From positions 806,001 through 870,000 of the forward strand of contig JAPEHQ010000011.1 in NCBI GenBank assembly GCA_027405735.1: a DNA stretch of 64,000 nucleotides. The letters run 5' to 3'. This DNA comes from Mucor racemosus (taxonomy: Eukaryota > Mucoromycota > Mucoromycetes > Mucorales > Mucoraceae). Shown piece after piece: positions 16,499 through 38,166 of this stretch (positions within the stretch are counted from its first letter, which is position 1; every line of letters begins with the position of its first letter). The notes under the pieces were generated by a model. It did not search any database. It was not told the origin of the DNA and saw only the letters and a list, made by a program, of their open reading frames with translations. The position numbers and the translations under genes are program-made.

Positions 16499-17021
16499 CA
16501 TATAATAGCTATGCATTAATTTTTTTTCTCGAGAATAGAAAAGAAATGATCATAGATCATATTATGTAGTGAATCATCCTCATGTTACCTTTGAGGGGGG
16601 ATAGTGTATATACACAAAACTGACTTTTTGACAGAGGTAGTTGACAAGCATTAAAAAAGAAGCAAGAGAGAGAGAGAGAGAGAAAGAGAGAAAGATGATA
16701 TGCAGACAAAAAGAAAACAACCCTGATATAGACTAGTATATGTTGCGGCCCTTTATGTAACTCCTTTTAACGCAGTAGTTGACCTTTATCCCCCTTTCTT
16801 TTGACAGCCTATACTTGAGTTTATTAAGCGGTAAGGCCCTAAGGAGCCTTTTTTTTATAAATATAATAATTGTTTAATATTATTACCGTGTAAAGAAGAA
16901 TGCTGATATACACATGTACATTTGTATCCCTTTGAATTCTATTATATATAAATATGATTCGATTTTCTGATATTTTTCTTCGTTTCTTCTTTTTTACCTC
17001 ATCAGTTTTTTGCTTGCAAAA
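15261..17021. other. Intergenic, no gene recognised
   Basis: AT-rich sequence with a 34-bp poly(T) at 16462-16495 and a GA-rich microsatellite at 16665-16693. The last few hundred bases are the likely promoter of the Myb-like gene, with TATA-like tattatatataaatatg near 16940-16955. Nothing else is recognised. Confidence 0.5.
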
Positions 17022-17570
17022 ATGGATATTAAAAATTTACTCTGTCATACTACACAACATTATAACGAACAACAATATGAAAAGCAGGCCTTTGAATATT
17101 GTCCTTCATCGCCATCTTCGTGGTCTAGTGCATCATCTAAGTCATCTATTTATTCACCCATTTTATCGCCTATCACTCCTTCTACGACTAGTACTCCTAC
17201 AGATACATTACGAAAGAAACAGCATCAAACACGAACGCCATGGACAGCATCCGAAGATTACTTACTAGAAAAAGGTTATTTGCAAGGTTTATCCTGGGCA
17301 ATGATATCTGCAAAATATTTACCTCATCGATCTCGTGGTTGCTGTTGGGGTAGATTCAAGACATTACAAGCGAAATGTACAGAAAAGAAGAATTGGACAA
17401 AATCCGAAGACCGAGCGTTACTAGGTGCTATTAAGAAGCATACTCGACTTTTCAAGCAAGCTTGGAGATCAGTTGCATTTGATTTAAGCGAGAGAGATTG
17501 GAGAGAATGTGAGATCAGATCCGCTCGTATATCAGGCTTAATAGTACAACAACAACGACAACAAGATTAA
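17022..17570 (+). CDS. Myb/SANT-like DNA-binding protein
   Basis: Single exon, 182 aa from the ATG in aaaaATGGat; an in-frame TTG a few codons upstream is not used here. The N-terminal third is Ser/Pro/Thr-rich. The middle reads TPWTASEDYLLEKGYLQGLS then SRGCCWGRFKTL, which is a Myb-like repeat (W..EDYLL.....G.SW..I...). A second similar repeat follows, starting NWTKSEDRALLGAI with W at the third helix. Two tandem Myb-like repeats predict a nuclear DNA-binding protein; the target is unknown. Family assignment rests on the spaced tryptophans and the acidic ED after the first W. Confidence 0.72.
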   Translation: MDIKNLLCHTTQHYNEQQYEKQAFEYCPSSPSSWSSASSKSSIYSPILSPITPSTTSTPTDTLRKKQHQTRTPWTASEDYLLEKGYLQGLSWAMISAKYLPHRSRGCCWGRFKTLQAKCTEKKNWTKSEDRALLGAIKKHTRLFKQAWRSVAFDLSERDWRECEIRSARISGLIVQQQRQQD

Positions 17571-18051: not shown

Positions 18052-21000
18052 ATGAAGGATTTACTTGCTCCTTTTTTTTGTGTATATAACTTTTTAATGA
18101 ACTTGTTTGGGAGCTATTTCATAGTCATCACGTTTATCATTTTAGGAGGTGTAGTACACTGTATCAATAAACTTCAAGATGAATTGTCTGAATTTACTTT
18201 ACCTACATGTGATTTAACAACGCCAATAATATCTAAAAAAAGAAGACGCATTTCCTTCATTTCGCATGAATCTGCTATCGCCACTTTTTTTCATAACCCA
18301 GAACAAGGTTCACGGGATGCTGCAAACCTTGTTGATGTTGATATTGAATGGAACCGTTATTTGATGAAATCAGAATCAAAAATAGTTCAAGATATTCATG
18401 ATGCAGTCAACAGTGTAAGCATAATTTTTTATTTGTATCGATCACACAGGACTAAAAATGAATCAAACAGGGAATCGATGGAATTATTGCTTCTATTCCA
18501 AGTGATAATGTATTTGAAGCAATAAAATATGCATTATCTAAAAATGTACCTGTCATTGTGTTTAATTCAGGTCTCGATTATGCAAGAAAGCTTGGCTTAA
18601 CTCGAGTATTACAAGATGATATTGAAGCAGGCAATATGTTGGGTGAAGAATTATACAAAGCTAATTTCTCAAAACCATTAACAGTTCAATTGTCATCTCT
18701 TGATGATGATACAAGTGAACGTAGAAGATTAGGCATTCAACAAGCCATAGGACATGATCCTGCATTATTGAAAGTATTTGAAGCATCGAATGTAAGCGCA
18801 ATGAATACGCCAGTACAGTTTGTGCGTGATGCTTTCCTTTCAAATCCAGGTGCCTACGATTCGATTATATCGCTTGGTGGATCAGTAGGTCTTTTTATCT
18901 TGAGATGCATGCATCTTTTTTACTTGGGCTACATTACTAATACTCCCAGATATTATAGTCATGCGCTGATATTGTTGCAACTTCAGTATTAAGTTTGAAA
19001 CATAGTTTTGCTCCTATGAATATTGCATCTGCTTTCTTTGATGTTGGTGGAGAAAATGTATCTGCTTTATTTCGATTAGAAAAAAATACTTTTGCAGTAA
19101 CTCAATTACCATATTATCAAACTGCTTTACCCATATTTTACATGTATTTAAGAGTAAGAGATTCAGAATGATACACATATTTGTCTAAAACTAAATACTT
19201 TAAAAGTTATTAACAGGCGAAGATGTATATAAAAATCAAACAATCAAAACAGGTCCTAATCTTATCACCAATGCAACACTATCATATTTCATGCAAAATG
19301 AAGCAAATTCGTTAATTTCAATCAATGATAAATCAGGATCTATAGGAGCACTTGTTCCAAATACCCGAGGAGATACATACAATGCTGCAATGATGGCAGG
19401 CGTAAATAATCTTGCAAAAAAGCTCAATTGGACAGTGTATAATCCTAAAGAGGTGTGTTAAATGATCTAATATTTTACATTTGCTATTCACTAATGTAAA
19501 TACATTAGGAAGGACTACTAGTATCATCACAAAAAATGGAAAAAGATTTAGATTTTTTCGTAAACAAAGGTGTAGATGGTATACTCATGCAATCCAGTAG
19601 CAATAAGATTTTAGAATATGCTTCAAACGCTATTAATAGAGCCGAGAGTCCAATGAGTGCTGTTGCAGTAGGCTCGTTTTTTGAAAAATACAATAGAACA
19701 TACCCGTAATGTACATAAAAAAAAACATTGTTATGTCTGAATCACCTGTTTTACTTACCCTATTACCACAGAAACCTTTCCAATGTAGCACTTGATATGA
19801 TAGAATTGTCTAAATCCATCGCTGAAAGAGTAGTAATTGATGGCAATTCTAGGCCTGTATGCATCACAGAGAGATCTACGGAAGTTTCTAGTCCATTTTG
19901 TCAGTATTTTTACGAAGCATTTCAAGAATTGCACGGTAATAATGCTATACCAAAATCAAATCAAGTAGTTCAATCTGTTAATGTTTCGTATCCTGGTGCC
20001 ATGGAAAATGAATTTATGGCAATTATTCGAAGGTTATACGAAGATGGTTCATACGAACCCGATAGTTTTATTACATTTTCAGAATATGTATTTGAAATTA
20101 TCAATAGTGTGAGCTTTTTTACATTTGTATAATACGTGTCTACTTTTTATTAACAAGTATTTATCAGCGAATTCTAAAAGGGTATTTAGATAATAGTACA
20201 GTGTCTGTGTACACAGCAGGCGAGTTATTTGATCAAAATCAAGCATATCTAGAAGGCCGAGTTAAAGGACTATGGACCACCAACATGTTTTCAATTGGCT
20301 TCATGTCATTACTTCATATAGTACTCAATAGAATGATAGATTTTCCATCTTGGGAAGGTGCATTGATCTCAATACCTCGTATTGAAAATATCTGTGATCC
20401 AGGCACATATCATTCTAATTTTACAACAACTGCATATTGCCAAGACTATGGCAATACACAAAAATCTATTCAATGTATACCATGCCCTGAAAATATGTAC
20501 ACTGACTTGCCTGACCAAGACCAATGTAAGACTTGTGCATTTGGTTATTTCTCATTACCAGGATCAACAACATGTACAACTTGCTATGATAAATTTGACA
20601 ATACTACCAGTAGTAATGTTATCAATAATAGCTGTTTAGCATACATTGATAATCAAGCATCTGAAAAACGTCAATTATACATGTCAATATTTATACCCAT
20701 TGGTATTGTTTTATTGTTGGTTGCAGCTGCTTTCTTGTATAAATTTTTAAGAAAACGTTGGTTGATACAACGTGCTTCAGGAAGTGATGAAGATTGGTTG
20801 CTTTCCTTTAACGAGCTTGTCAAACCACCTATTCATAGGCTAGAAAGCAATGCCACTACTGCTGGCGCTGGTGCTATTCAAAAGTCATCGTTATCGAGAT
20901 CGGAATTGCCTTTACAAAGTAGATCAAGCACTCCTGTCATGAATGCAAATAATTGGAATTCTTCTAATGAACTACAAGAAGGAGGAATCGTTGTAAAAAA

Positions 21001-24000
21001 CAAAACTACATGCACTGGTATCGATGGAACAATAACACCTCCATATTATCATTCAAGATCTGACCCTGATCTACATGTCAATGAGATCCATCATAACCAA
21101 AGAGGAGCAAAAGGAGGAGGCATCGGAGGAGGAATCAGAGGAGTGAAAGAAGAAGCAAGAGTAGGAACACCACCATTATCATCAGCATCATTAAAAACAG
21201 CATCATCGGCATCAGGAATAGTAGAAGGATCATTACTTAGTAATAATAATAATAATAATCGAAAATCAGGAGCTATCACGGCAGCTACGACATCGGCAAC
21301 AGCAGCTCTAACAGCAATTGCATCTAGTAATAAACTTGACAATAGATCAATCACGGGAAAACCTGAATTTATACACGCCCTTGGGTTCCAGTAAGGTCTT
21401 TTTTTTTTTTTTCTTGTACATCGTATCATCTTACCCACTCTTTTGTTTATAGTCGTAATTTACCTGTCTATATTAAACAAATTGGTCATAAAAAAGTACG
21501 AGTAGACAGTGAATTACGTAAAGAAGTATCCTTGATGAAGAATGCTAGACATTCAAAATTAACTGAATTTATTGGATTAATCTTGGAACCACAGCGAACC
21601 TTTATTGTTGAAGGTAATCTATATACCTTTAATTTGATAGAAATAACTCACACCCAATCTTCTCAAATAGAGTACTGTTCAAAGGGGTCTTTGACGGATG
21701 TCTTAGCTAACCCTGATATCGATCTAGCGTGGATATTTCGTTTCACTTTGATTAATGATTTAATTAGTGGTAAAATATAATATAATATAATATAACATAA
21801 TAATTCAATCCCTAGAAAAAAATCTCCCTGACGAATTTCTTCTGTTTATTAGGGATGAGGTTTTTACATCGATCGAAATTCCAATATCACGGATGCTTAA
21901 CGTCAGATTGTTGCATGGTAACTGGTAGATGGGAACTAAAGATATCAAATTATGGTTTGAGACAACTACGACATTCTCAGGTTGTGGATACAATGGGTCA
22001 TTCTCCAAATCTCAAAAGAAAAAACAGTTTATTTAAAAAGGATGCTGTATTGTCAGATGAGATTGCTCATGTATTAAGATCAACCGAGACACTTTTATGG
22101 CTTGCTCCTGAATCTGTAGTTACTACTCCACTAAATGTGTATTTAACATATCCAAGTAAACAAGCCGATGTATATAGGTAACTTTTCAATATAAAAGTAA
22201 GGGAATACATAATAACCTTGCATTTATTAGCGCTGGAATCATTATAAATGAAATTCTGACAAGGGAAAAACCTTATGCAAATAAAAAATTAAGCCCTGAA
22301 TTTATCTTTCAACAAGTATGCACCATCGATCTCAGACCTCATATGCAGCCACCAGGAAAAGACGATTTTACACAAGGAATGAACTCTATTGTTTCCGATT
22401 GTTTGCAACAATCTCCATATGCTCGTCCATCATTTACAACAATAGGGGTATATACATATAAAACTTCTTTATCTACATAGTAATAGTCTAATTCATTTTT
22501 ATAGACTCGTGTAGAAGAATTAGACCCTTACTTTTATGGCTCTGATTCTATGATTGATAATATGGCAGTTTTGGTAATCTATATTCTGCATTTTTATCGA
22601 TCCCTTGTTTACGTAAATGCTTTGATATTTAGCTCGAAAAATATGCAAATAATATGGAAATCCTAGTTAAAAAACGTACTGCAAATCTACAACAGAGAAC
22701 ACTAGAGTTAGAGGAAGAAAGAACAAGAACAGAAACTCTATTAAAAGGTATTATTTAACCTAGAAAGGAGACATCTGTATGTATTACTAAATCACATTCA
22801 TAGATCTGAAAACTGCAAAAGAGGTGGCTGAAGCGGCTGCTGCATCAAAACAAAGCTTTTTGGCAAATATGTCGCATGAAATTCGTACCCCTATGAATGC
22901 AGTTATTGGCATGTCGAGAAGCTTAATGGAAAGCGATTTACCACCAGATCTATATGATTGTGCTGAGACTATAGAATCCTCTGGTATGTTTAATCAAAAA
23001 TATGCAACATTAACTATTTGCTGAAATATTTATGCTATAGGTAATCATTTAATGGCTCTGATTGATGACATTTTGGATTATTCAAAGATCGAATCTGGAA
23101 AACTAGCATTAGAAAGAAGCAATTTAGATTTGGTTTGTATAATAACATTTTCAAAACTCGGTAAAAATTAACACCCTTTCTGAAAATGTATATACAGACT
23201 TATGCGATTGAAAGTGCCATCAAGTTGATTTCAACAAATTATCTCAGTAAGGGCATTGTATTATGGTATACAATTGCCCCTGATTTGCCAGTTCATGTAT
23301 TGGGTGATCTTGTGCGATTGAGACAAATTCTTTTAAATTTGTATGTATTGTCGTTGGAAATTGTATCGAGTATGCATTATTAATTTTAACATAGACTTTC
23401 AAATGCCTTTAAATTCACAAAAGAAGGTTATGTTTGCATATCGGTAACGCCTTTCCAGAATAGCAGTATAACTCATCCTGATGCAGCTATTATGAATGAT
23501 GCTTCTACACCTTTCGGCAGTAGTCCTAGTATCAGGGAAGACAATTATGATCCTAATGCCATGGTATCCTACTTGTTTTCTGTAAAAGATACAGGCATTG
23601 GAATACCTGTAGAAAAAATAAACAAACTGTTCAAATCGTTCTCGCAGGTAGATGCTTCAACAACTCGTAATTTTGGAGGAACAGGTATTTGGTTTTAGTT
23701 CATTTCGCTCATCTTTCTTTACTCAATTTTAACATAGGACTTGGCTTGGCTATCAGTAGAAAGCTATGTAAAATTATGGGCGGTGACATGTGGGTAGAAT
23801 CAGAAGAGGGAAAAGGTTCTACATTCTTTTTTAAAGTAGATTTACAGAAGCAAATTGAATCAAACACCTATAGAGAAGAAAATCATTTATTTGAACTGTC
23901 AATTGCATGTCCTCGGCCGCTTCTCATAGCAGAAAGTGAGACGATTAGATTAAAATGGGTCTCATTATTACACAATATCGGTATAGCAGAGGCAATTATC

Positions 24001-25122
24001 ATGACTACCAGTGAGGCAGAGACGCATTTCTCTACCATCAAAAACAAAAAACAAATAGACTTTTCCATTATTATTATAGACATTGATTTTAACTCAATTG
24101 ACATGACAGTCAGTAGTACAAGCGTCTTGGACAATTTAGAGAAATACTACAGCCGTATCAAGCATATACCAACTTTATGTGTCAATGACATTCGTTTAAA
24201 GAGACGACCCAAGAACCAACAGATGAGTGAAAATGATTTATCCGCATCTTGTATTCAACATCCTGTCGGATCTCTTGATCCGGCTCCTACACCAAATGAT
24301 GAAAAGATAGATCCATTTGCTTCTACATCGACGCACCTTAATACAACTACAGCTACAAGATTAGACATGACTGAAATGCAAAACACACATCTACATGCAA
24401 CCATTATAAAACCTTTTAAAAACTCTAGACTCATCAGTATTTTGCATGATTTGTTAAATTATGAAAAATCGCCCACGTTCAAAAAAAGGCGAATACCATC
24501 CGTTGGATCTATCAGCATTCATTCGATGAACCGCCGTGGTAGTTTACAACAACAACAACAACAACAACAGCAACAACATCATCATCATAGACTGATATCA
24601 TCACCAGGATCAAGCAAAAATAGTCATAGAACAAGCAATAGCAATCATGAAGATGTCAATGCTCTTGAAGAAATGACCACAAATAACTCCTCTGAATCAG
24701 GATCTACTGATAATTTAGCAAATATAAAAACTCTTATAGTCGATGATAACGCAATCAACCTCAAAGTATTATCAAGAATGCTGACACAGATTGGTATACG
24801 GCCCCAATCCGCCAACAATGGTAGAGAAGCGTTTGAAATCATTGCCAAGGAACCATTTGATTTAGTGTTTATGGATATTTGGATGCCTGAAATGAACGGC
24901 TTAGAAGCATCAGAAAAGATTCGAAAAGAAGTAGCTACTTCGGATACACAACCTTATATCATTGCATTAACTGCTTGTGTCATGCCAGGTGATAGAGAGA
25001 AATGTATTAAAGCAGGTATGAATGGATACGTCAGTAAGCCCATTCGAAAAGAAGAGCTAGAAGCATCAATTCATACATTTACACAAACAGTTATGACCGC
25101 TACAACCACTACTTTAGAATGA
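18052..25122 (+). CDS. Hybrid histidine kinase with receptor-guanylate-cyclase-like pseudokinase
   Basis: Reconstructed from 18 exons: 18052-18414, 18471-18884, 18959-19153, 19207-19452, 19509-19705, 19772-20108, 20168-21390, 21453-21613, 21671-21769, 21853-22177, 22231-22447, 22505-22573, 22633-22747, 22804-22983, 23041-23132, 23198-23340, 23395-23684, 23738-25122 (6051 nt, 2016 aa). Order: N-terminal membrane segment (about 20-42); two periplasmic-binding-like modules (about 65-320 and 360-650; [25 protein letters not shown]); Cys-rich stalk from residue 660; TM about 757-778; pseudokinase about 990-1270, with [10 protein letters not shown] and SNYGL where active kinases have HRD and DFG; linker helix [13 protein letters not shown]; HisKA with His1345 ([15 protein letters not shown]); HATPase with N, G1 and G2 boxes ([29 protein letters not shown]); a degenerate receiver; polyQ near 1826; a true receiver with Asp1935 ([11 protein letters not shown]) and Lys in VSKPI. 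It likely senses an external ligand and feeds a His-to-Asp phosphorelay at the plasma membrane. Confidence 0.9.
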
Positions 25123-25263: not shown

Positions 25264-28196
25264 ATGACATATCCTCCATTTAAATTAGAATCAACTCTTT
25301 CAAATCATGAACAAGATGTAATATAAAACATACTATACAAATATCCTTCAAGGTATTAACTATGTAATCATTTTTCAGGTCAGAGCTGTAGCTGCCATGT
25401 CAAATGATGTGATTATTTCAGCTGCTCGTGATAAAACTGTACGTTCTTGGTCTCGTACTAGTCCAAACACCTTTTCGCCTCACAATATTTATTTGGGTCA
25501 TGGTCATTTTGTGAATGCATTAGCATTGATTAAGCCAAACCAAAATTATCCTGAAGGTTAGTATTTGTGGTTACCATGGCAACGACATTACTGAAAAATA
25601 TACATAGGTTTAATTGTATCTGGTGGATCTGATAAATTCATTAATGTCTATGATCCTAATCAACCCGCTGAACCTAGATTTACATTGATTGGTCATAGCG
25701 AAAATGTTAGTGCTTTAGCAACAACGCCTTCTGGTCACATTGTTTCTGGTTCTTGGGACAAGTAAAGTTCAATATTTTTTGATTCGAATTTATATACAGT
25801 TATTAACAAAATGTTTGACAACGAAATAGTAAAGCAATTGTGTGGAAAGAATTTCAACAATCTTATGTTCTTGAAGGTCATACTGCCTCTGTTTGGGCTG
25901 TTTTGGCAATTGAAGATGATTTAATCTTGACAGGTATGTTCGAAATCATTGTTTCCATGGCTCATTTTTTTTTACTCATGTTGAAATAGCTTCCGCTGAT
26001 AAATCAATTCGTTTGTGGAAAAATGGAAAGTTGGTACATGTATATCAGGGTCATACAGAAGCTGTTAGAGGTCTTGCATTGGTTCCTGGAATTGGATTTG
26101 TATCATGCTCCAACGATGGGTAAGGTTATAAAATCAAATAACACAAAATTTACACTAAATCTTTTTGTTGTAGAACTTTGAGAGTTTGGACATTGGAAGG
26201 AGAATGCGTTCAGCAATTAGACGGCCATACATCATTTGTATACTCTGTCGACGTTTTAAGCACAGGCGAATTTGTATCTTCAGGTGAAGATCGTACTGTT
26301 CGTATTTGGAAGGATGGACAAAATATTCAAACTCTTCAACAACCATGTATTTCAGTTTGGACAGTAGCTGTATTACCCAATGATGATATTGTCGTAGGTG
26401 GTAGTGATGCTACTGTTCGAGTTTTCACTCGTGATGCTGAGCGTATGGCTGTTGCCGAAGCACAGAAGGAATTTGATGAATTATTAGCAAGCCAAGCTAT
26501 TCCTTCGTAAGTATATTTACTTACAAAAATGTTGCAATATATTGACATTTTGTATATAGTAATCAAATTGGTGATGTAGAGAAAGATAAATTACCAGGAC
26601 CTGAGGCTTTACAACAAGCTGGTAAAAAGGAAGGACAAGTGATTATGGTGAATATGGGCGCTACAGTGGAAGCTCATCAATGGAGTGCACAAAGTGAAAG
26701 CTGGCAAAAGATTGGTGAGGTTGTTGGTAGTAATAAATCAAAAGCAACTTTTGAAGGAAAAGAGTACGATTATGTATTTGATATTGACGTTGGTGCTGGT
26801 CCCAATGGCAACCTTAAACTTCCTTATAATGTCTCGGGTTAGTTTATTCAAAATGTGTTCTGATTTGCAAAAACTCATAGATTTAAAATAGAAAATCCTT
26901 ACGATGCTGCACAAAAGTTTTTATCAAAATATCAACTCGATCAATCTTTCTTGGATCAGGTTGCTGATTTCATTATTAAAAACGCAGAAGGTGTTAATTT
27001 AGGTGGTGGATATCAAGATCCTTTTACTGGTGGAAATAGATACACTCCTCAATCAAGTCAACCTACTATCGGTCAAGCTTATATGGATCCCTTTACTGGT
27101 GGTGGATCTTATCGTCCTGGCGCTTCAAATTCCACATCTGCCTCTGGTGCCTCTACTTATTCTGATCCCTTCACCGGTGGTGGATCTTATAGACCTGCTG
27201 GTAGCGCCCCTGTTATTCCGGCAGCAGCAGCCCCATCGCCCACGCAACAACTCAAGGTTTTACCTATCGTATGTACATTTTAACTAAAAGCAACCTACAG
27301 TTTCTAACAATTTCTAACAGAAATCTTACTTGACCTTGAAACAAGCTAACCCCGAAGCCGTTGTAAACAAAATCCGTTCTCTAAACGACGAAATATCAGC
27401 CGATATAAAACTTTCAGAAGAAGAGCTCGCATCTTTGACCACTTCTGCCTCATTTTTAAAGAACCCTACAGCTGCAGGGATCAATGCCGCCGGTGGTGAT
27501 TCTGGTCTCCTTGCCGTCATCAAGATGGCTACCCACTGGCCTCAAGAAAAGCGATTCCCTGCACTTGATTTAATCCGTTTATTCGCACTTTATGCACCCG
27601 AGGAATTAGCATCTGCTGTACCTGAAGGAAATGTAGCTGCACTTTTAATGAAAGCCGGTGGTTTATCTGCCAACGAAGCTGTGCCTCTTAATGAAACTAA
27701 TGCCATGTTGGCTTATCGTGGTTTAGCTAATCTTTTCAATCAAGAAGCAGGTCGTCAATTGATTTGGGAAAAACGTAATATTATTGCTGATATCATGTCG
27801 GTTGAAATCACTGGAAAATTCAAAGGAAAAAACGCTCGTTTAGCACAAAGTACTTTGGCTGTTAACTTTGCTGTTTTACTTGCTAGTAAAAAAGAAGGTG
27901 AAACCGAGCTTGGCTTTACTGGAACTTTGGTAGAATTGTTGAAAGATGAGCAAGATGATGAGAATTTGTATAGATTTGTCATGGCTTTTGGAACCTTGGT
28001 AAGTTTTTTTTTTTTTATTATTATTTGTCAATAAATATTAATATCAAACAATGAATAGATCTGTCAGTCAAGCGCTTGTCGTGAAGTTGGAAATATCATG
28101 GAAGCTAAAACTGAAATTAGACGCATTCAATCCCAAAAAGCTGGTCAAGATCGTATGCAAAAGGCTACTGCTGAGATTCTTCAGATTTTAGCATAG
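25264..28196 (+). CDS. DOA1: DOA1/UFD3 (PLAA) ubiquitin-binding Cdc48 cofactor
   Basis: Reconstructed from ten exons: 25264-25317, 25379-25556, 25608-25761, 25830-25933, 25990-26119, 26174-26506, 26560-26837, 26892-27268, 27321-27998, 28059-28196 (2424 nt, 807 aa). The family binds ubiquitin and Cdc48/p97 and acts in ubiquitin recycling and endosomal and mitochondrial protein turnover. The first half is a WD40 propeller (VSGGSDKFINVYD, LTASADKSIRLWKNGK, SSGEDRTVRIWKDGQ). Next comes the PFU domain (KDKLPGPEALQQ, EGKEYDYVFDIDVG). A linker with three DPFTGG(G)-type repeats is followed by the C-terminal PUL domain (KSYLTLKQANPE to the stop). Length is close to human PLAA. The start lies 141 bp after the kinase stop, so its promoter is very compact or embedded in the upstream gene's 3' end. 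Confidence 0.93.
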
Positions 28197-28740: not shown

Positions 28741-31478
28741 TTATAATTCATGCGCTTTTCGAAGATCTCGGCTTGCTTTAATTAGAGGAATCAAAGTTTT
28801 GACATTTTCGCCTCTTTTCAAGAAGGGATTCTCTAATAATGTCTTGGCACTTGGCCTTTCTACGCTGTCTACAGTCAATGATTGCTTTAAAAAGTCTTTT
28901 AGTTTATCTGATAATTCGTCAGGGTGTTGTAAAGATGGTGTTCCATTTGTTGCGATTAAATATAAGGCTCTCAAAGGATTTTCATGCAAATATGGGGGTT
29001 CGCCTTCAATCATTTCAATCACCATGATACCTAATGACCATATATCAATCTTGGGTCCATATTCTTTTCTGGTAACAACTTCAGGTGCCATCTAAAATAT
29101 CTTGTTTAATATAAACCCATTTTCTCGTGCAAAACAATAGAATACTTTACCCAATATGGTGTACCAACCATTGTTGTTCTTGATTCTTCATCATTTAATC
29201 TTGCACAAAAACCAAAATCAGCTACAGAAAGAAGATGTTAGCATGCCAAATATTACCCCATAGCAAAAAAAAAAAAAAAAAAAAACCTACTTAATTTAAC
29301 ATGGCCATTCAATCCCAAAAGCACATTGTCAGATTTGATATCACGATGAATAATACCAAGTGAATGTAAATGATCAATTCCCTCTAATGTTTCTCTACAA
29401 ACCGTAGCAATTTGACTTTCTGTCATCATACTTGTAGTAACAACATCTGTCAAGCTTCCACCCTCCATATATTCCATCACTACCCACAATTCATTAGATA
29501 CCAAAAAGGAATCAATAAAATTCACAATATTCTTATGCTGAGCTTCCCGCATGACCAAAATTTCATTGATGATCACTTCCTTTCGTGATTGTTGTGCTAA
29601 ATTCATTTGCTTGATTGCGACAGACATGTTGGTATCTACTGATTGAGCTGTATAAACACCACCAGAAGCACTAAATATATATGCTTCATTAGTGTATAGA
29701 TTCTTTGTCGTCTTCTATTATAAACTTACCCTTGGCCAATCTTGATCATATTTCGATAAAGCTTTGTCGGATCAGCATCCGTACAAATGGCTTGAAGATC
29801 TGCAATCACTTGAGCATCCTTTAACGCTTCTTTTTGTTGTCTCTGTTCCCTACGAAGTTGTCTTGTCTTGTCTTGCTGTGATGTATCCATAGCTGGATCA
29901 AGTGGAGCTGCTGAGGGTGCAATATAAACAGATGATAGCACACGAGGTGGTTTATTGGATCGTGGTGGCGGCGTTGGAGTCTTTGTAAGCGCCGCTGCCA
30001 TATCATCCGTTGTTGTTGTTGTTGATGCTGTTGCTTTAGTTGCTTGAATAGGCAATTTTTTCTTTGGTAACACGGGAGGTTTAGTTGACAATGGTGGTTT
30101 AGGAGGAGGTAGCTTTTGTAATTGTGAAGATTTCTCTGGACGAGCTGGTATAGGAGGAGCAGATGATACTGTAAGAGGAGGACTAGGAGGCGTCACTGGA
30201 ATACTGTGTGTAGTAGTAATAGGTGGAGTTGTTGTTGTTGTTGTTGAATTAAGAGATGGAGGTGGCGGTGGAGAAGTATTATTGAGTCGATTGTATTGAT
30301 GATTTATATTGCTTTTATGCTATCAAGAAAAAAAAAAGGGAGTTAACATCAACCAAGTAAAATAAACAAACGACATACTGCAATTGTTGTAGGAGGACGA
30401 GTGGGTACAGGAGGCTTGGTATCTTGAATTTGTTGATTATTACTACTAGAAACAACAACCAATTGAGGTCTTGTTCGTTGAGGCAATGGCGGAGGGCTTG
30501 ACCGAGAAGTATAATTTCTTGGATGAACATTGTCAAACTTTTCCCATACAGTATCCAAAGATTGATCTTTTGAATCCTTATAAAATCCCAATACATCTAA
30601 CACAGCCTATTTTAAATATAAATGATGAGTTTTTCTCCTACGCCTTGATTACACAAAAAAAAAGTAACCTACCTGTGGATTTTGCTGTTGCTCTTTTTTA
30701 GTAATACCACTTTGTTGTAAAAGGATATGCCATTCTCTTGGCATACCTGTAAACTCGCCAGTTTGTGGATTGAAGCCGACATGTGTTACATGAACCATAT
30801 TATATGGAGAGGATATCTTGGCTTTTCCATTGCCATTGTGTTGTGATTTGGCATTTGCACTATTGACAGATGATGCAGTTGAATTTCCTTGTATAGTCCA
30901 TAAATCTTTTTTTAGCGTAATTAGTGAATATTTATATAACAAAATAAATAAACAAACTTACCACTAACACTACCGACTACTTTCCCGAGCATTCCCTTCA
31001 AAGTAGACCCACTTCTTTGAGCTACAATCGGTGATGGAGTTGGAGCAGAATTTAATGAGGATGAAGATGATGGAGTTAAGGCCGTAATTTTCTTGTTATG
31101 ATTATTATTGTTATATCCTGATTTTAATGCCCCATTTCTAATAGGTCTTGGTGGGGTTGCTGGTAAAGGTGGAGGTAAAGAAGCGACCGAAGAAGCTAAA
31201 ACGGGTGGAAGTGGAGGAGGAGAAGGAGGAGATGGTGGTGGAGGGGGAGAAGAAGAATAAGAAGAAGAAGGTTGTACATCAACTTTTTTACTAGGTTTCG
31301 GTGGTAATGGAGGCAAATAGTTATTATTGTTGTTATTAGGCGTATTATTGATTGTTGTTGTTGTCGCTGTTGTTGTTGAATTTGAGGTTTTTAACGTTGG
31401 CTCATTGTCAGATTTACTATTAAATAACTTAATATTTGCGGATACAAGACCTATCGCTGGAGAAGAAGGGGACGACAT
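28741..31478 (-). CDS. Ste20/PAK-type serine/threonine kinase
   Basis: Reconstructed from seven exons: 31478-30962, 30905-30673, 30606-30379, 30319-29730, 29670-29291, 29221-29151, 29091-28741 (2370 nt, 789 aa). A CRIB Rho-GTPase-binding motif lies at about residues 203-232 ([15 protein letters not shown]). Long Pro/Ser/Thr-rich stretches sit on both sides. The kinase domain starts near 515: glycine loop GQGASGGVY, Lys543 in [14 protein letters not shown] with Asp633, DFG at 651-653, activation-loop VGTPYWMAPE. The family acts downstream of Cdc42/Rac in polarity and MAPK signalling. No PH domain is visible before the CRIB motif, so it is Ste20-like rather than Cla4-like. Polyproline segments ([17 protein letters not shown]) are probable SH3 or profilin ligands. 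Confidence 0.93.
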
Positions 31479-35928: not shown

Positions 35929-37050
35929 ATGCCGTTTTTCTACTACTGATAAGGTGCCCAATATATATTAATTTAGTCTGAAATAAAAGGAGATTGTTGT
36001 GGTAGAAGCGTACAAATTGCTAGCTTACGGTTGCACATGTTTACATTAGTTTTTCTCTCATCTATCAATGAAATGTGTATGAGGATCATATCAACAAAAT
36101 TGCACCATAATAAAGAATCTATAAAACCCCTCTTTTTTTTTTTTTTTATTAATTATACTTATTAAAAGCTTATTTACGGGGCTCTGCCTAGTATTATACA
36201 TTTTACACTGATATATCATGGTGACACCAAATGAAACATTTGTTATCGATGATGGTGAAATATATGAAAAAAAAAAATCAATACATGTAAAATGATCAGC
36301 AAGCAATCAATCGATTTAAAACTATGCATCGCTGATTTTCTGGTTTATTTTTTGTTTTGTTTTAGATGGCGTAGTTAAATGTTAATTGTAGTCTCTTTGT
36401 CAGCATAAATTAAGCAAATTTAGTGGGTAAACCCTCTTCAAATGTCTCTATTTTTTTTTTCTGTAAAAAAGCATATTTTCTATTGAATAAATACTTCAAA
36501 AAAAAACACACTTATTAATTGTGTATTCAAAATCAAACTATCTTTTTATGCAACAGCTATTCATTTGTTAATCTATTGTTCAATGTTCCGTCATGTCTGA
36601 TAAGAATGGTGCAAATGATTTATCGGGATCGAGGATTTAGTGAACCATTTAACCGATCTGATTGGGTTCAAACAGAACAATTCTTCGGCATCTTGATTCT
36701 CCGGAATTCAATTCATTTTGTATAGTGGGAAATAAAAACATTTGTATTTAAATGAGACATTAAAAACGACATTATTTGAGGATATACAGATATACGCTCA
36801 TATACTAAATATTATTTAAAAGGTATATTTATGTTTTCTGTCAAAACAGGTATCAACATCAGTGGCTTATTATTGTTACACCCTCCTTGTATCGGAGCAA
36901 CAGAGAAAGAGAATGAGTGAGAGAGTGAGTTAAAGGGGTTCCTTCAAAAAGTCATATAATTAGGTTTGTACACCAGCATTTTTGTTTAAGTTTTTTTGTT
37001 CTTCTTAAACTTTTTTTTTTCTTTTGTATACATATATATATATATCAATC
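35929..37050. other. Intergenic, no gene recognised
   Basis: About 1.1 kb, AT-rich. The last 150 bp is the probable promoter of the isomerase gene, with pyrimidine-rich tracts (about 36985-37025) and a TATA-like tatatatata just before the ATG. Confidence 0.5.
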
Positions 37051-38166
37051 ATGCTTCAAACAACCGAGGATATCATTGATAACGCTTCAAACATTCTAAT
37101 TGAAGAAGCTTTGAGTATAAATGAAGCAGCACAAAGATTGAAAACCAACACAGATTCAAGAAATGGATATCACCAAGCAGTCTATCTCATGTTCAAATCT
37201 TTAGATGCTGGAGGAAAAGTTATTGTTACTGGTGTCGGAAAATCCGGAAAAATTGGTGAAAAGATTGTAGCTACTATGCTATCTACTGGAACATGTGCTA
37301 CATTCTTGCATCCTGTTGAGGCATTACATGGTGATCTTGGTACAGTGCAACCCAATGATGTTGTATTAGCCTTATCATTTTCTGGAAATACAGAGGAATT
37401 ACTAATGTTACTACCTAGTTTGAAGCATCGTAATATTCCTGTCATTGGTCTAGGTGGCAACGCAAAGAGCAAGTTGGCAAGAGAATGTGCTGCATGGATT
37501 GATGGTTATGTTAAGCGTGAAGCTGGCGATATACCTGCTCCTACTTCATCTACTACACTTACATTGGCTTTGGGTGATGCTTTAGCCCTTACACTAGCAA
37601 AATTACGAACATTCACTACTGATGGATTTGCTTTGAATCATCCTGGAGGCTCTTTAGGCAGAAGATTACTATTAAAGGTTAAGGACATCCTTATAGACTC
37701 TTCTAAAGTGGCAACAGTAAATAGAAATACATCATTAGACATTATTATCATGGAAATGACTCAACATCCTAAAGGTTCCGGTGTAATCGTTTTGGACGAT
37801 GAATTGTTACCAGAGCATGTAGATGAAAATATGAGCGGCAATAATTACTTGTTTCCTTCACCGCCTATTTCAGAAACTTCCTCACTTGAAGATTATGACA
37901 TTTCATCTAGATCTAGTAGAATAGCAGGTGTTATTACTCATGGGGACATACATAGAGTCTTGAAATCCGCTACCAAGGAAGGCATTTTTCAAATTTGCGC
38001 AGTAGATATCATGTCTTCAAACCCAGTAGTCTTTCATGATGAAGGTCTAGCTTCAGACGCAGTTACAACCATGAAAGAGAAGAATATTCCTTTATTACCA
38101 GTGCTGAATAGTGACAAAAATTGGGTGGGCGTTATTACGCTAAAAGATCTTCAGGAGTTATTCTAA
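37051..38166 (+). CDS. SIS-CBS sugar-phosphate isomerase (KpsF/GutQ/KdsD type)
   Basis: Single exon, 371 aa, starting at the ATG of MLQTTEDIIDN. The SIS sugar-phosphate-binding domain covers about residues 40-190 (GKVIVTGVGKSGKIGEKI, HPVEALHGDLG, LSFSGNTEEL, the DALA segment). GFALNHPGGSLGRRLLLKV is the hallmark linking segment of the KpsF/GutQ arabinose-5-phosphate isomerases, followed by two CBS repeats. A Ser/Glu-rich insert interrupts the first CBS repeat. In bacteria this enzyme feeds KDO synthesis; fungi do not make LPS, so the substrate here is unknown. It has no introns in an intron-rich neighbourhood. A CT microsatellite follows the stop at once. Confidence 0.9.
   Translation: MLQTTEDIIDNASNILIEEALSINEAAQRLKTNTDSRNGYHQAVYLMFKSLDAGGKVIVTGVGKSGKIGEKIVATMLSTGTCATFLHPVEALHGDLGTVQPNDVVLALSFSGNTEELLMLLPSLKHRNIPVIGLGGNAKSKLARECAAWIDGYVKREAGDIPAPTSSTTLTLALGDALALTLAKLRTFTTDGFALNHPGGSLGRRLLLKVKDILIDSSKVATVNRNTSLDIIIMEMTQHPKGSGVIVLDDELLPEHVDENMSGNNYLFPSPPISETSSLEDYDISSRSSRIAGVITHGDIHRVLKSATKEGIFQICAVDIMSSNPVVFHDEGLASDAVTTMKEKNIPLLPVLNSDKNWVGVITLKDLQELF

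What the first reader, a model, noticed from the sequence alone, without database searches (positions are those of the whole stretch)
18052..25122. Receptor-guanylate-cyclase chassis carrying a histidine kinase
The cytosolic half follows receptor guanylate cyclases step by step. It has EYCSKGSL and [13 protein letters not shown] kinase-homology segments, HG.L.S..C in place of HRD, NYG in place of DFG, and then a linker helix ([20 protein letters not shown]) of the kind that precedes the cyclase. The cyclase position is instead a full HisKA-HATPase-receiver. The outer half has two bacterial-type sugar-binding-protein modules and a Cys-rich stalk. If the reconstruction holds, an animal-style allosteric receptor core drives a two-component output. 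Continuous frame through 18 exons argues for a single gene.
Basis: partly seen in the sequence, partly recalled or inferred. Interest (0 to 1): 0.92.

Follow-up and report, generated by a model that had tools for sequence, protein, structure and literature searches.

The report
Fungal receptor pseudokinase driving histidine kinase
A Mucor-like fungus has a gene for a cell-surface receptor whose inner half is built like the animal natriuretic-peptide receptor but ends in a bacterial-style histidine kinase instead of a cyclase, a natural part-swap that lets one ask how such receptors pass on their signal.

Summary
The gene (18 exons, 17 GT-AG introns, 2016 aa) reads as one gene: a predicted Mucor bainieri protein matches it almost end to end (71% over 2034 columns), homologous protein runs across all 17 junctions, and a second copy lies elsewhere in the genome. 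Order: signal peptide, two sugar-binding-protein modules, Cys-rich stalk, one membrane helix, kinase-homology domain (KHD), signalling helix, HisKA, HATPase, degraded receiver, receiver. KHD plus helix is closest to receptor guanylate cyclases: among solved structures natriuretic receptor 1 (135 bits) and GC-C (80) precede any other kinase (63.5); in two trees family and cyclases join at 100/99 and 99/99. Named relatives are Mucorales and Mortierellales; none of 45 fungal hits lists a cyclase domain. In 0 of 68 aligned relatives do both catalytic Asp survive, so it is a pseudokinase. The helix is one heptad longer than in animal cyclases (three in two relatives), as if register mattered. Best reading: an outer ligand signal passes through pseudokinase and coiled coil to a phosphorelay. 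It is not a receptor guanylate cyclase (no cyclase) but uses its inner chassis. Ligand, activity and direction of the swap are unproven. Ten paper searches listed no description of it; database names are automatic.

The parts
18052..25122 (+). whole gene, 18 exons; coding start at 18052 or 18097
   Evidence: splice reconstruction; relatives
18097..18162 (+). signal peptide (residues 16-37)
   Evidence: hydropathy; start of P0001; coordinates
18250..19269 (+). sugar-binding-protein module 1 (residues 67-345, exons 1-4)
19333..20380 (+). sugar-binding-protein module 2 (residues ~367-655, exons 4-7)
20393..20650 (+). Cys-rich stalk, nine Cys in residues 660-740
   Evidence: nine Cys invariant in 24 of 24 aligned relatives; window positions
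20681..20749 (+). single transmembrane helix (residues 756-778)
   Evidence: hydropathy
20795..20797 (+). juxtamembrane Trp794 of DWLLSFNEL, matched by a W motif at the like place in receptor guanylate cyclases
   Evidence: in 10 of 10 family and 5 of 5 cyclase rows that I chose to print
21454..22513 (+). kinase-homology domain (residues 993-1262): HRD Asp is Cys1093, DFG Asp is Asn1111, VAIK Lys1000 kept
22535..22746 (+). signalling helix (residues 1270-1320, [25 protein letters not shown]...)
22848..23099 (+). HisKA with phospho-acceptor His1345 (22875-22877)
   Evidence: PF00512
23303..23847 (+). HATPase_c with N, G1 and G2 boxes
   Evidence: PF02518
23908..24471 (+). degraded receiver-like region (residues ~1613-1800), an inference
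   Evidence: alternating strand/helix pattern with a disordered insert in the model of P0050; no Pfam match
24733..25071 (+). receiver domain with phospho-acceptor Asp1935 (24874-24876)
   Evidence: PF00072

Best explanation
A type I membrane receptor of Mucorales and Mortierellales in which the inner chassis of a receptor guanylate cyclase (juxtamembrane Trp motif, pseudokinase, signalling helix) is joined within the signalling helix to a hybrid histidine kinase. Shown by sequence: the gene, its domains, its kinship and its conservation. Inferred: a small ligand, most likely a monosaccharide or cyclitol, closes module 1 (and perhaps 2) and changes the dimer; the KHD, perhaps holding nucleotide without phosphotransfer, acts as an allosteric gate; the signalling helix carries the change in register to the HisKA dimer; the kinase phosphorylates His1345 and then Asp1935, and the phosphate goes to the HPt protein of this genome and so to a Ypd1-type relay.
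For: KHD plus helix: natriuretic receptor 1 E 3e-38, 135 bits, GC-C 80 bits, next kinase CTR1 63.5; the NPR1 alignment is in two pieces, the second running from the kinase end through YANN..ERT. Trees: family plus cyclases 100/99 and 99/99. HMM of five RGC helices: 29-41 bits on 9 of 9 chosen family helices; of seven other histidine kinases of this genome five gave a score, 5.8 or less, and two none. ERT-to-LL distance 13 in 6 of 6 cyclases, 20 in 4 and 34 in 2 of 6 family rows, i.e. whole heptads apart. Tyr-to-His distance 59 in 57 of 60 measurable of 74 rows. No row of 68 keeps both the HRD and the DFG Asp. One continuous helix 255-343 in the model of P0050. His, N, G1, G2 and receiver Asp present. 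One HPt found in the genome. 13 N-glycosylation sequons before the membrane helix.
Against: No transcript, ligand, nucleotide binding or kinase activity was measured. Helix confidence in the model is low (block means about 48-67) and it was a monomer. The ERT part of the helix is generic: BarA- and TorS-type models align from about residue 1278-1285 of P0002, though far below their cut-offs, so the second half of the helix may come from the kinase parent. The stretch between the kinase-end RP and YANN is 34 in window and in P0072 but 30-35 across 65 of 66 family rows and 31-34 in cyclases, so it is not a fixed spacing. With a sea-cucumber receptor as query the best single exon in this genome is another kinase (C12:1707733, 76.5 bits); the C6 paralog is second (63.9) and the window exon 20th of 32 (30.3), our genes being split into small exons; on spliced proteins the window scores 107.8 against 78.0 for that partial kinase. 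Putative ligand residues are only partly kept (Gln of QLPYY 13 of 24).
Confidence: 0.75

Rival explanations
1. Fungal group X hybrid histidine kinase (N-terminal Ser/Thr kinase-related domain) with a changed sensor; the cyclase likeness is superficial.
For: Three histidine kinase loci of this genome have a kinase-like domain upstream; calling them group X rests on recall of that group's make-up, the domains between were not tested. Holding the family and these three together is not rejected (p-AU 0.105); their branch is long (2.6).
Against: Window KHD scores 6.0-8.5 bits against the three, 83-120 against six receptor cyclases. The free tree puts them outside a 99/99 branch that joins family and cyclases. 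No GAF domain is listed for the window protein.
Confidence: 0.05
2. Two or more neighbouring genes joined in silico.
For: Some relatives are annotated as halves, e.g. P0116 (outer half) and P0083 (kinase half), both Circinella umbellata on a contig of 756713 bp. No transcript was seen.
Against: Homologous protein across all 17 junctions; by listed domains 44 of 45 fungal hits carry HisKA together with the KHD in one predicted protein and 34 of 45 a sugar-binding domain too; the C6 copy matches P0015 from residue 18 to 1739 in pieces.
Confidence: 0.05
3. KHD-helix-histidine kinase is the older form: an opisthokont ancestor had it and the animal line replaced the kinase by a cyclase.
For: Family and cyclases are sister clades without polarity in the second tree; signalling helices are most common before histidine kinases (PMC1592074, passages).
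Against: Among named hits only two fungal orders hold it. In the first tree two long cyclase rows, a nematode and an unnamed one, fall nearer the family (86/82), a join the tool warns about.
Confidence: 0.15
4. The KHD is an active kinase in part of the family and the protein is a dual Ser/Thr-His kinase.
For: Taken singly, Asp at the HRD position in 20 of 68, at the DFG position in 23 of 68, VAIK Lys in 40 of 68 rows.
Against: Never together: 0 of 68 rows keep both Asp, and the 20 with HRD Asp all have Arg for the VAIK Lys.
Confidence: 0.03

Closest known systems
Animal receptor guanylate cyclases (natriuretic peptide receptor 1, GC-C, speract receptor, Gyc76C)
   Same: single-pass receptor, juxtamembrane Trp motif, kinase-homology domain with HG.L.S..C, then a signalling helix with DNM..EKYANN.E.LV..RT; the outer ANF_receptor domain is of the same broad PBP type I fold (recalled)
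   Different: no PF00211 cyclase listed for any of 45 fungal hits; outer modules are PF13407/PF00532, two in tandem, with a Cys-rich stalk, not PF01094; helix one heptad longer between ERT and LL
Fungal and bacterial hybrid histidine kinases with a signalling helix (Sln1p, BarA, TorS)
   Same: signalling helix leading into HisKA-HATPase-receiver; BarA and TorS models are the best NCBIfam matches of P0002 and P0007, far below cut-off
   Different: a pseudokinase sits before the helix; in the signalling-helix survey the fungal ones were all of the Sln1p type (PMC1592074, passages)
CUT2 sugar-binding proteins of bacterial ABC transporters (PDB 4ru1, RbsB, GanP)
   Different: tethered receptor part, in tandem with a second module whose best fold match is a LacI-type regulator
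Fungal group X hybrid histidine kinases
   Same: a protein-kinase-like domain and a histidine kinase in one chain (recalled)
   Different: KHD unrelated by score; no receptor half is known to me in that group

Membership tests
Receptor guanylate cyclase | class III cyclase domain PF00211 | tested here: not met
   absent from the window protein and from the listed domains of 45 of 45 fungal hits; the genome's three PF00211 hits lie elsewhere
Receptor guanylate cyclase | kinase-homology domain of the RGC family | tested here: met
   weaker in the exon-wise reciprocal search
Receptor guanylate cyclase | signalling helix following the KHD | tested here: met
Receptor guanylate cyclase | outer ANF_receptor domain PF01094 | tested here: not met
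   PF13407 and PF00532 instead
Hybrid histidine kinase | HisKA, HATPase_c and receiver above curated cut-offs with catalytic residues | tested here: met
Hybrid histidine kinase | HPt partner in the genome | tested here: met
   one PF01627 match found, C10:383496
Hybrid histidine kinase | autokinase and phosphorelay activity | not testable with these tools
   needs purified protein
Group X fungal histidine kinase | kinase-related domain of the group X type | tested here: inconclusive
   6.0-8.5 bits only, free tree places it apart, but the joint clade is not rejected, p-AU 0.105
CUT2 sugar-binding protein | PF13407 sequence and fold match | tested here: met
   module 1:
CUT2 sugar-binding protein | sugar binding | not testable with these tools
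   partly conserved candidate residues only

The most novel reading that the evidence does not exclude
The pseudokinase-signalling helix unit is an output-neutral allosteric module that evolution has coupled to two unrelated dimeric enzymes, a cyclase in animals and a histidine kinase in Mucorales and Mortierellales, with the coupling rule written in whole heptads; the histidine-kinase form may even be the older one.
Probability: 0.4. Interest if true: 0.88.

Novelty: new variant of a known kind. Interest (0 to 1): 0.74.

Why it matters
A survey of 30 fungal proteomes found no RGC-group kinase (PMC2838846, passage) and a later one no receptor-kinase architecture in fungi, hybrid histidine kinases being the nearest (PMC6733946, passage). 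The paper that named the signalling helix stated that only in animal receptor guanylate cyclases does it follow a Ser/Thr-kinase-like domain, and knew fungal examples only of the Sln1p type (PMC1592074, passages). This family lies outside those generalisations and is a natural domain swap at the very element proposed as the common coupler. It offers a way to ask what a KHD does when the enzyme behind it is not a cyclase, with autophosphorylation as the read-out.

Tried and rejected
Split-gene reading: set aside because of junction conservation. Group X origin: set aside by score, not by the AU test. Own-genome kinases as kin: rejected, with four of the nine extracted. Fixed RP-to-YANN spacing, which I first thought equal to the cyclases: not borne out across the family. 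Generic coiled coil only: weakened, but that control holds seven of the eight other HisKA places, three of them near-copies (L003-L005), and no signalling-helix kinase such as Sln1p. Plasmid collection search with P0072: at least the three rows shown match its cyclase end; nothing on this family. The outer-half search gave the query and ten others, Mucorales as far as I recall the genera, so no link of this outer half to another output was found. VIA-align rows for P0050 list tyrosine kinases, RIP kinases and histidine kinases; no receptor cyclase is among the 50 rows shown, which excludes nothing. P0077 and P0046 (plants) gain by having several kinase domains. Paper searches listed nothing that by title or abstract describes this family; Figure 2 of PMC5285503, on 'unprecedented' histidine kinases of early fungi including a Mortierella, could not be seen and may depict a member.

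Full report
What is there. The window is a stretch of a 53.2 Mb, 54-contig genome; the gene's closest listed relatives are Mucor proteins. Splicing 18052-25122 by hand gives 18 exons, 17 GT-AG introns of 53-83 bp, one frame of 2016 codons. Pfam finds, in order, Peripla_BP_4, protein kinase, HisKA, HATPase_c and Response_reg, all above curated cut-offs. A predicted protein from Mucor bainieri (P0002) aligns at 71% over 2034 columns. Homologous protein runs across each of the 17 junctions in three relatives. A second copy lies on contig C6 (L032), matched in pieces by Parasitella P0015 from residue 18 to 1739. These two were the only places in the genome with a Peripla_BP_4 match (exon-wise search, so a lower bound).

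Inner half. Against all PDB sequences the KHD plus helix finds natriuretic receptor 1 first (135 bits), GC-C next (80), then CTR1 (63.5), RIPK1 (62) and B-Raf (52). Against 5.8 billion proteins the best non-fungal relatives are receptor guanylate cyclases: five rows from named animals and one unnamed (P0072-P0076, P0078; E 3.4e-38 to 7.3e-25, 28-31% identity); a plant row with several kinase domains (P0077) comes between the last two, plant, oomycete and other kinases follow, and a further unnamed cyclase (P0099) lies far down. Trees: 44 chosen rows, family plus seven cyclases 100/99; forcing the family with four own-genome kinases rejected, p-AU 1.8e-5. Second tree, six rows dropped and three group-X-like domains added, 41 rows: family plus five cyclases 99/99, family and cyclases each a clade. 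The rows come from the same searches, so the sample of kinases is narrow. In the first tree the cyclases are not one clade, two long rows falling nearer the family. The reciprocal search over the genome is less clean: exon by exon another kinase wins (76.5 bits), the C6 paralog is second and the window exon 20th of 32; on spliced proteins the window leads 107.8 to 78.0.

The coupling element. A juxtamembrane Trp motif (DWLLSFNEL here, LWRISWDDI in medaka) follows the membrane helix in the 15 rows I printed. The helix carries [20 protein letters not shown] model of five cyclase helices scores 29-41 bits on 9 of 9 chosen family helices; of seven other histidine kinases of this genome five scored, at most 5.8. 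The distance from the RP at the kinase end to YANN is 34 in window and in P0072, but 30, 32 or 34 in most of 66 family rows and 31-34 in six cyclases, so it is not fixed. From the T of ERT to the LL pair there are 13 residues in 6 of 6 cyclases and 20 in the window and three other family rows, 34 in P0044 and P0069: exactly one and three heptads more. From Tyr of YANN to the phospho-His there are 59 residues in 57 of 60 rows where both motifs were found, of 74 rows tried; the others are P0044 and P0069 at 73 with LQARTAD repeated, and P0003 at 76, probably a retained intron. The model of P0050 draws one helix from 255 to 343, through YANN to beyond the His, at low to middling confidence. BarA- and TorS-type models also reach into this helix from the kinase side, so the swap point most likely lies inside the helix.

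Distribution. Of 48 hits, 45 are fungal; their genera are Mucorales or Mortierellales (five looked up, the rest recalled; NCBI puts these in the phyla Mucoromycota and Mortierellomycota). By listed domains 44 of 45 have HisKA, 34 of 45 a sugar-binding domain, none a cyclase. Some family rows come from unnamed metagenome sources. Sources name members 'RGC/RGC protein kinase', 'guanylate cyclase', 'Receptor-type guanylate cyclase gcy-13' or 'histidine kinase'. The search needs shared 5-residue words, so other fungal phyla are not excluded.

Pseudokinase status. Window: Lys kept, HRD Asp to Cys, DFG Asp to Asn. Of 68 aligned rows: Lys 40, Arg 25, gap 3; HRD position Asp 20, Cys 15, Arg 14, others 18, gap 1; DFG position Gly 37, Asp 23, Asn 5, Ser 3. 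Jointly, 0 of 68 keep both Asp; 25 keep neither; the 20 with HRD Asp all have Arg for Lys.

How it most likely works. Ligand closes the outer modules, the dimer rearranges, the KHD gates, the helix turns the HisKA dimer on or off, the receiver passes phosphate to the HPt protein (one found). All of this is inference from architecture. The genome has three cyclase-domain hits, none in this gene; L010 looks like a Cyr1-type adenylate cyclase by eye, with a PP2C-like stretch before the cyclase (type name recalled, not tested by profile).

Literature. [quoted passage not shown] PMC5285503: abstract start, passages and section 4, not its Figure 2. Ten searches listed no paper that by title or abstract describes this family; papers outside the held library were not searched.

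Noticed in passing
window 26142-28031 (+), with WD-like frames from about 25371: Downstream lies a Doa1/PLAA-like gene: WD40, PFU and PUL domains.
   Followed up: partly
window 16971-17567 (+): Upstream neighbour has a Myb-type DNA-binding domain.
   Followed up: partly
window 29289-29630 (-): Looks like an exon of an ordinary protein kinase, 27-29% like KHDs of relatives (also a hit).
   Followed up: no
L003, L004, L005 (C1:975052, C16:9171, C16:187030): Three histidine kinase loci with nearly identical sequence before HisKA, apparently recent copies.
   Followed up: no
P0044 and P0069: Members with exactly two extra heptads in the signalling helix against the rest of the family, a natural length-change experiment.
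   Followed up: partly
window 23908-24471 (+): Receiver-like region without a Pfam match between kinase core and true receiver, with a disordered insert in the model of a relative.
   Followed up: no
window 37009-38163 (+): SIS plus CBS domain protein of the sugar-phosphate isomerase kind (kind recalled).
   Followed up: no
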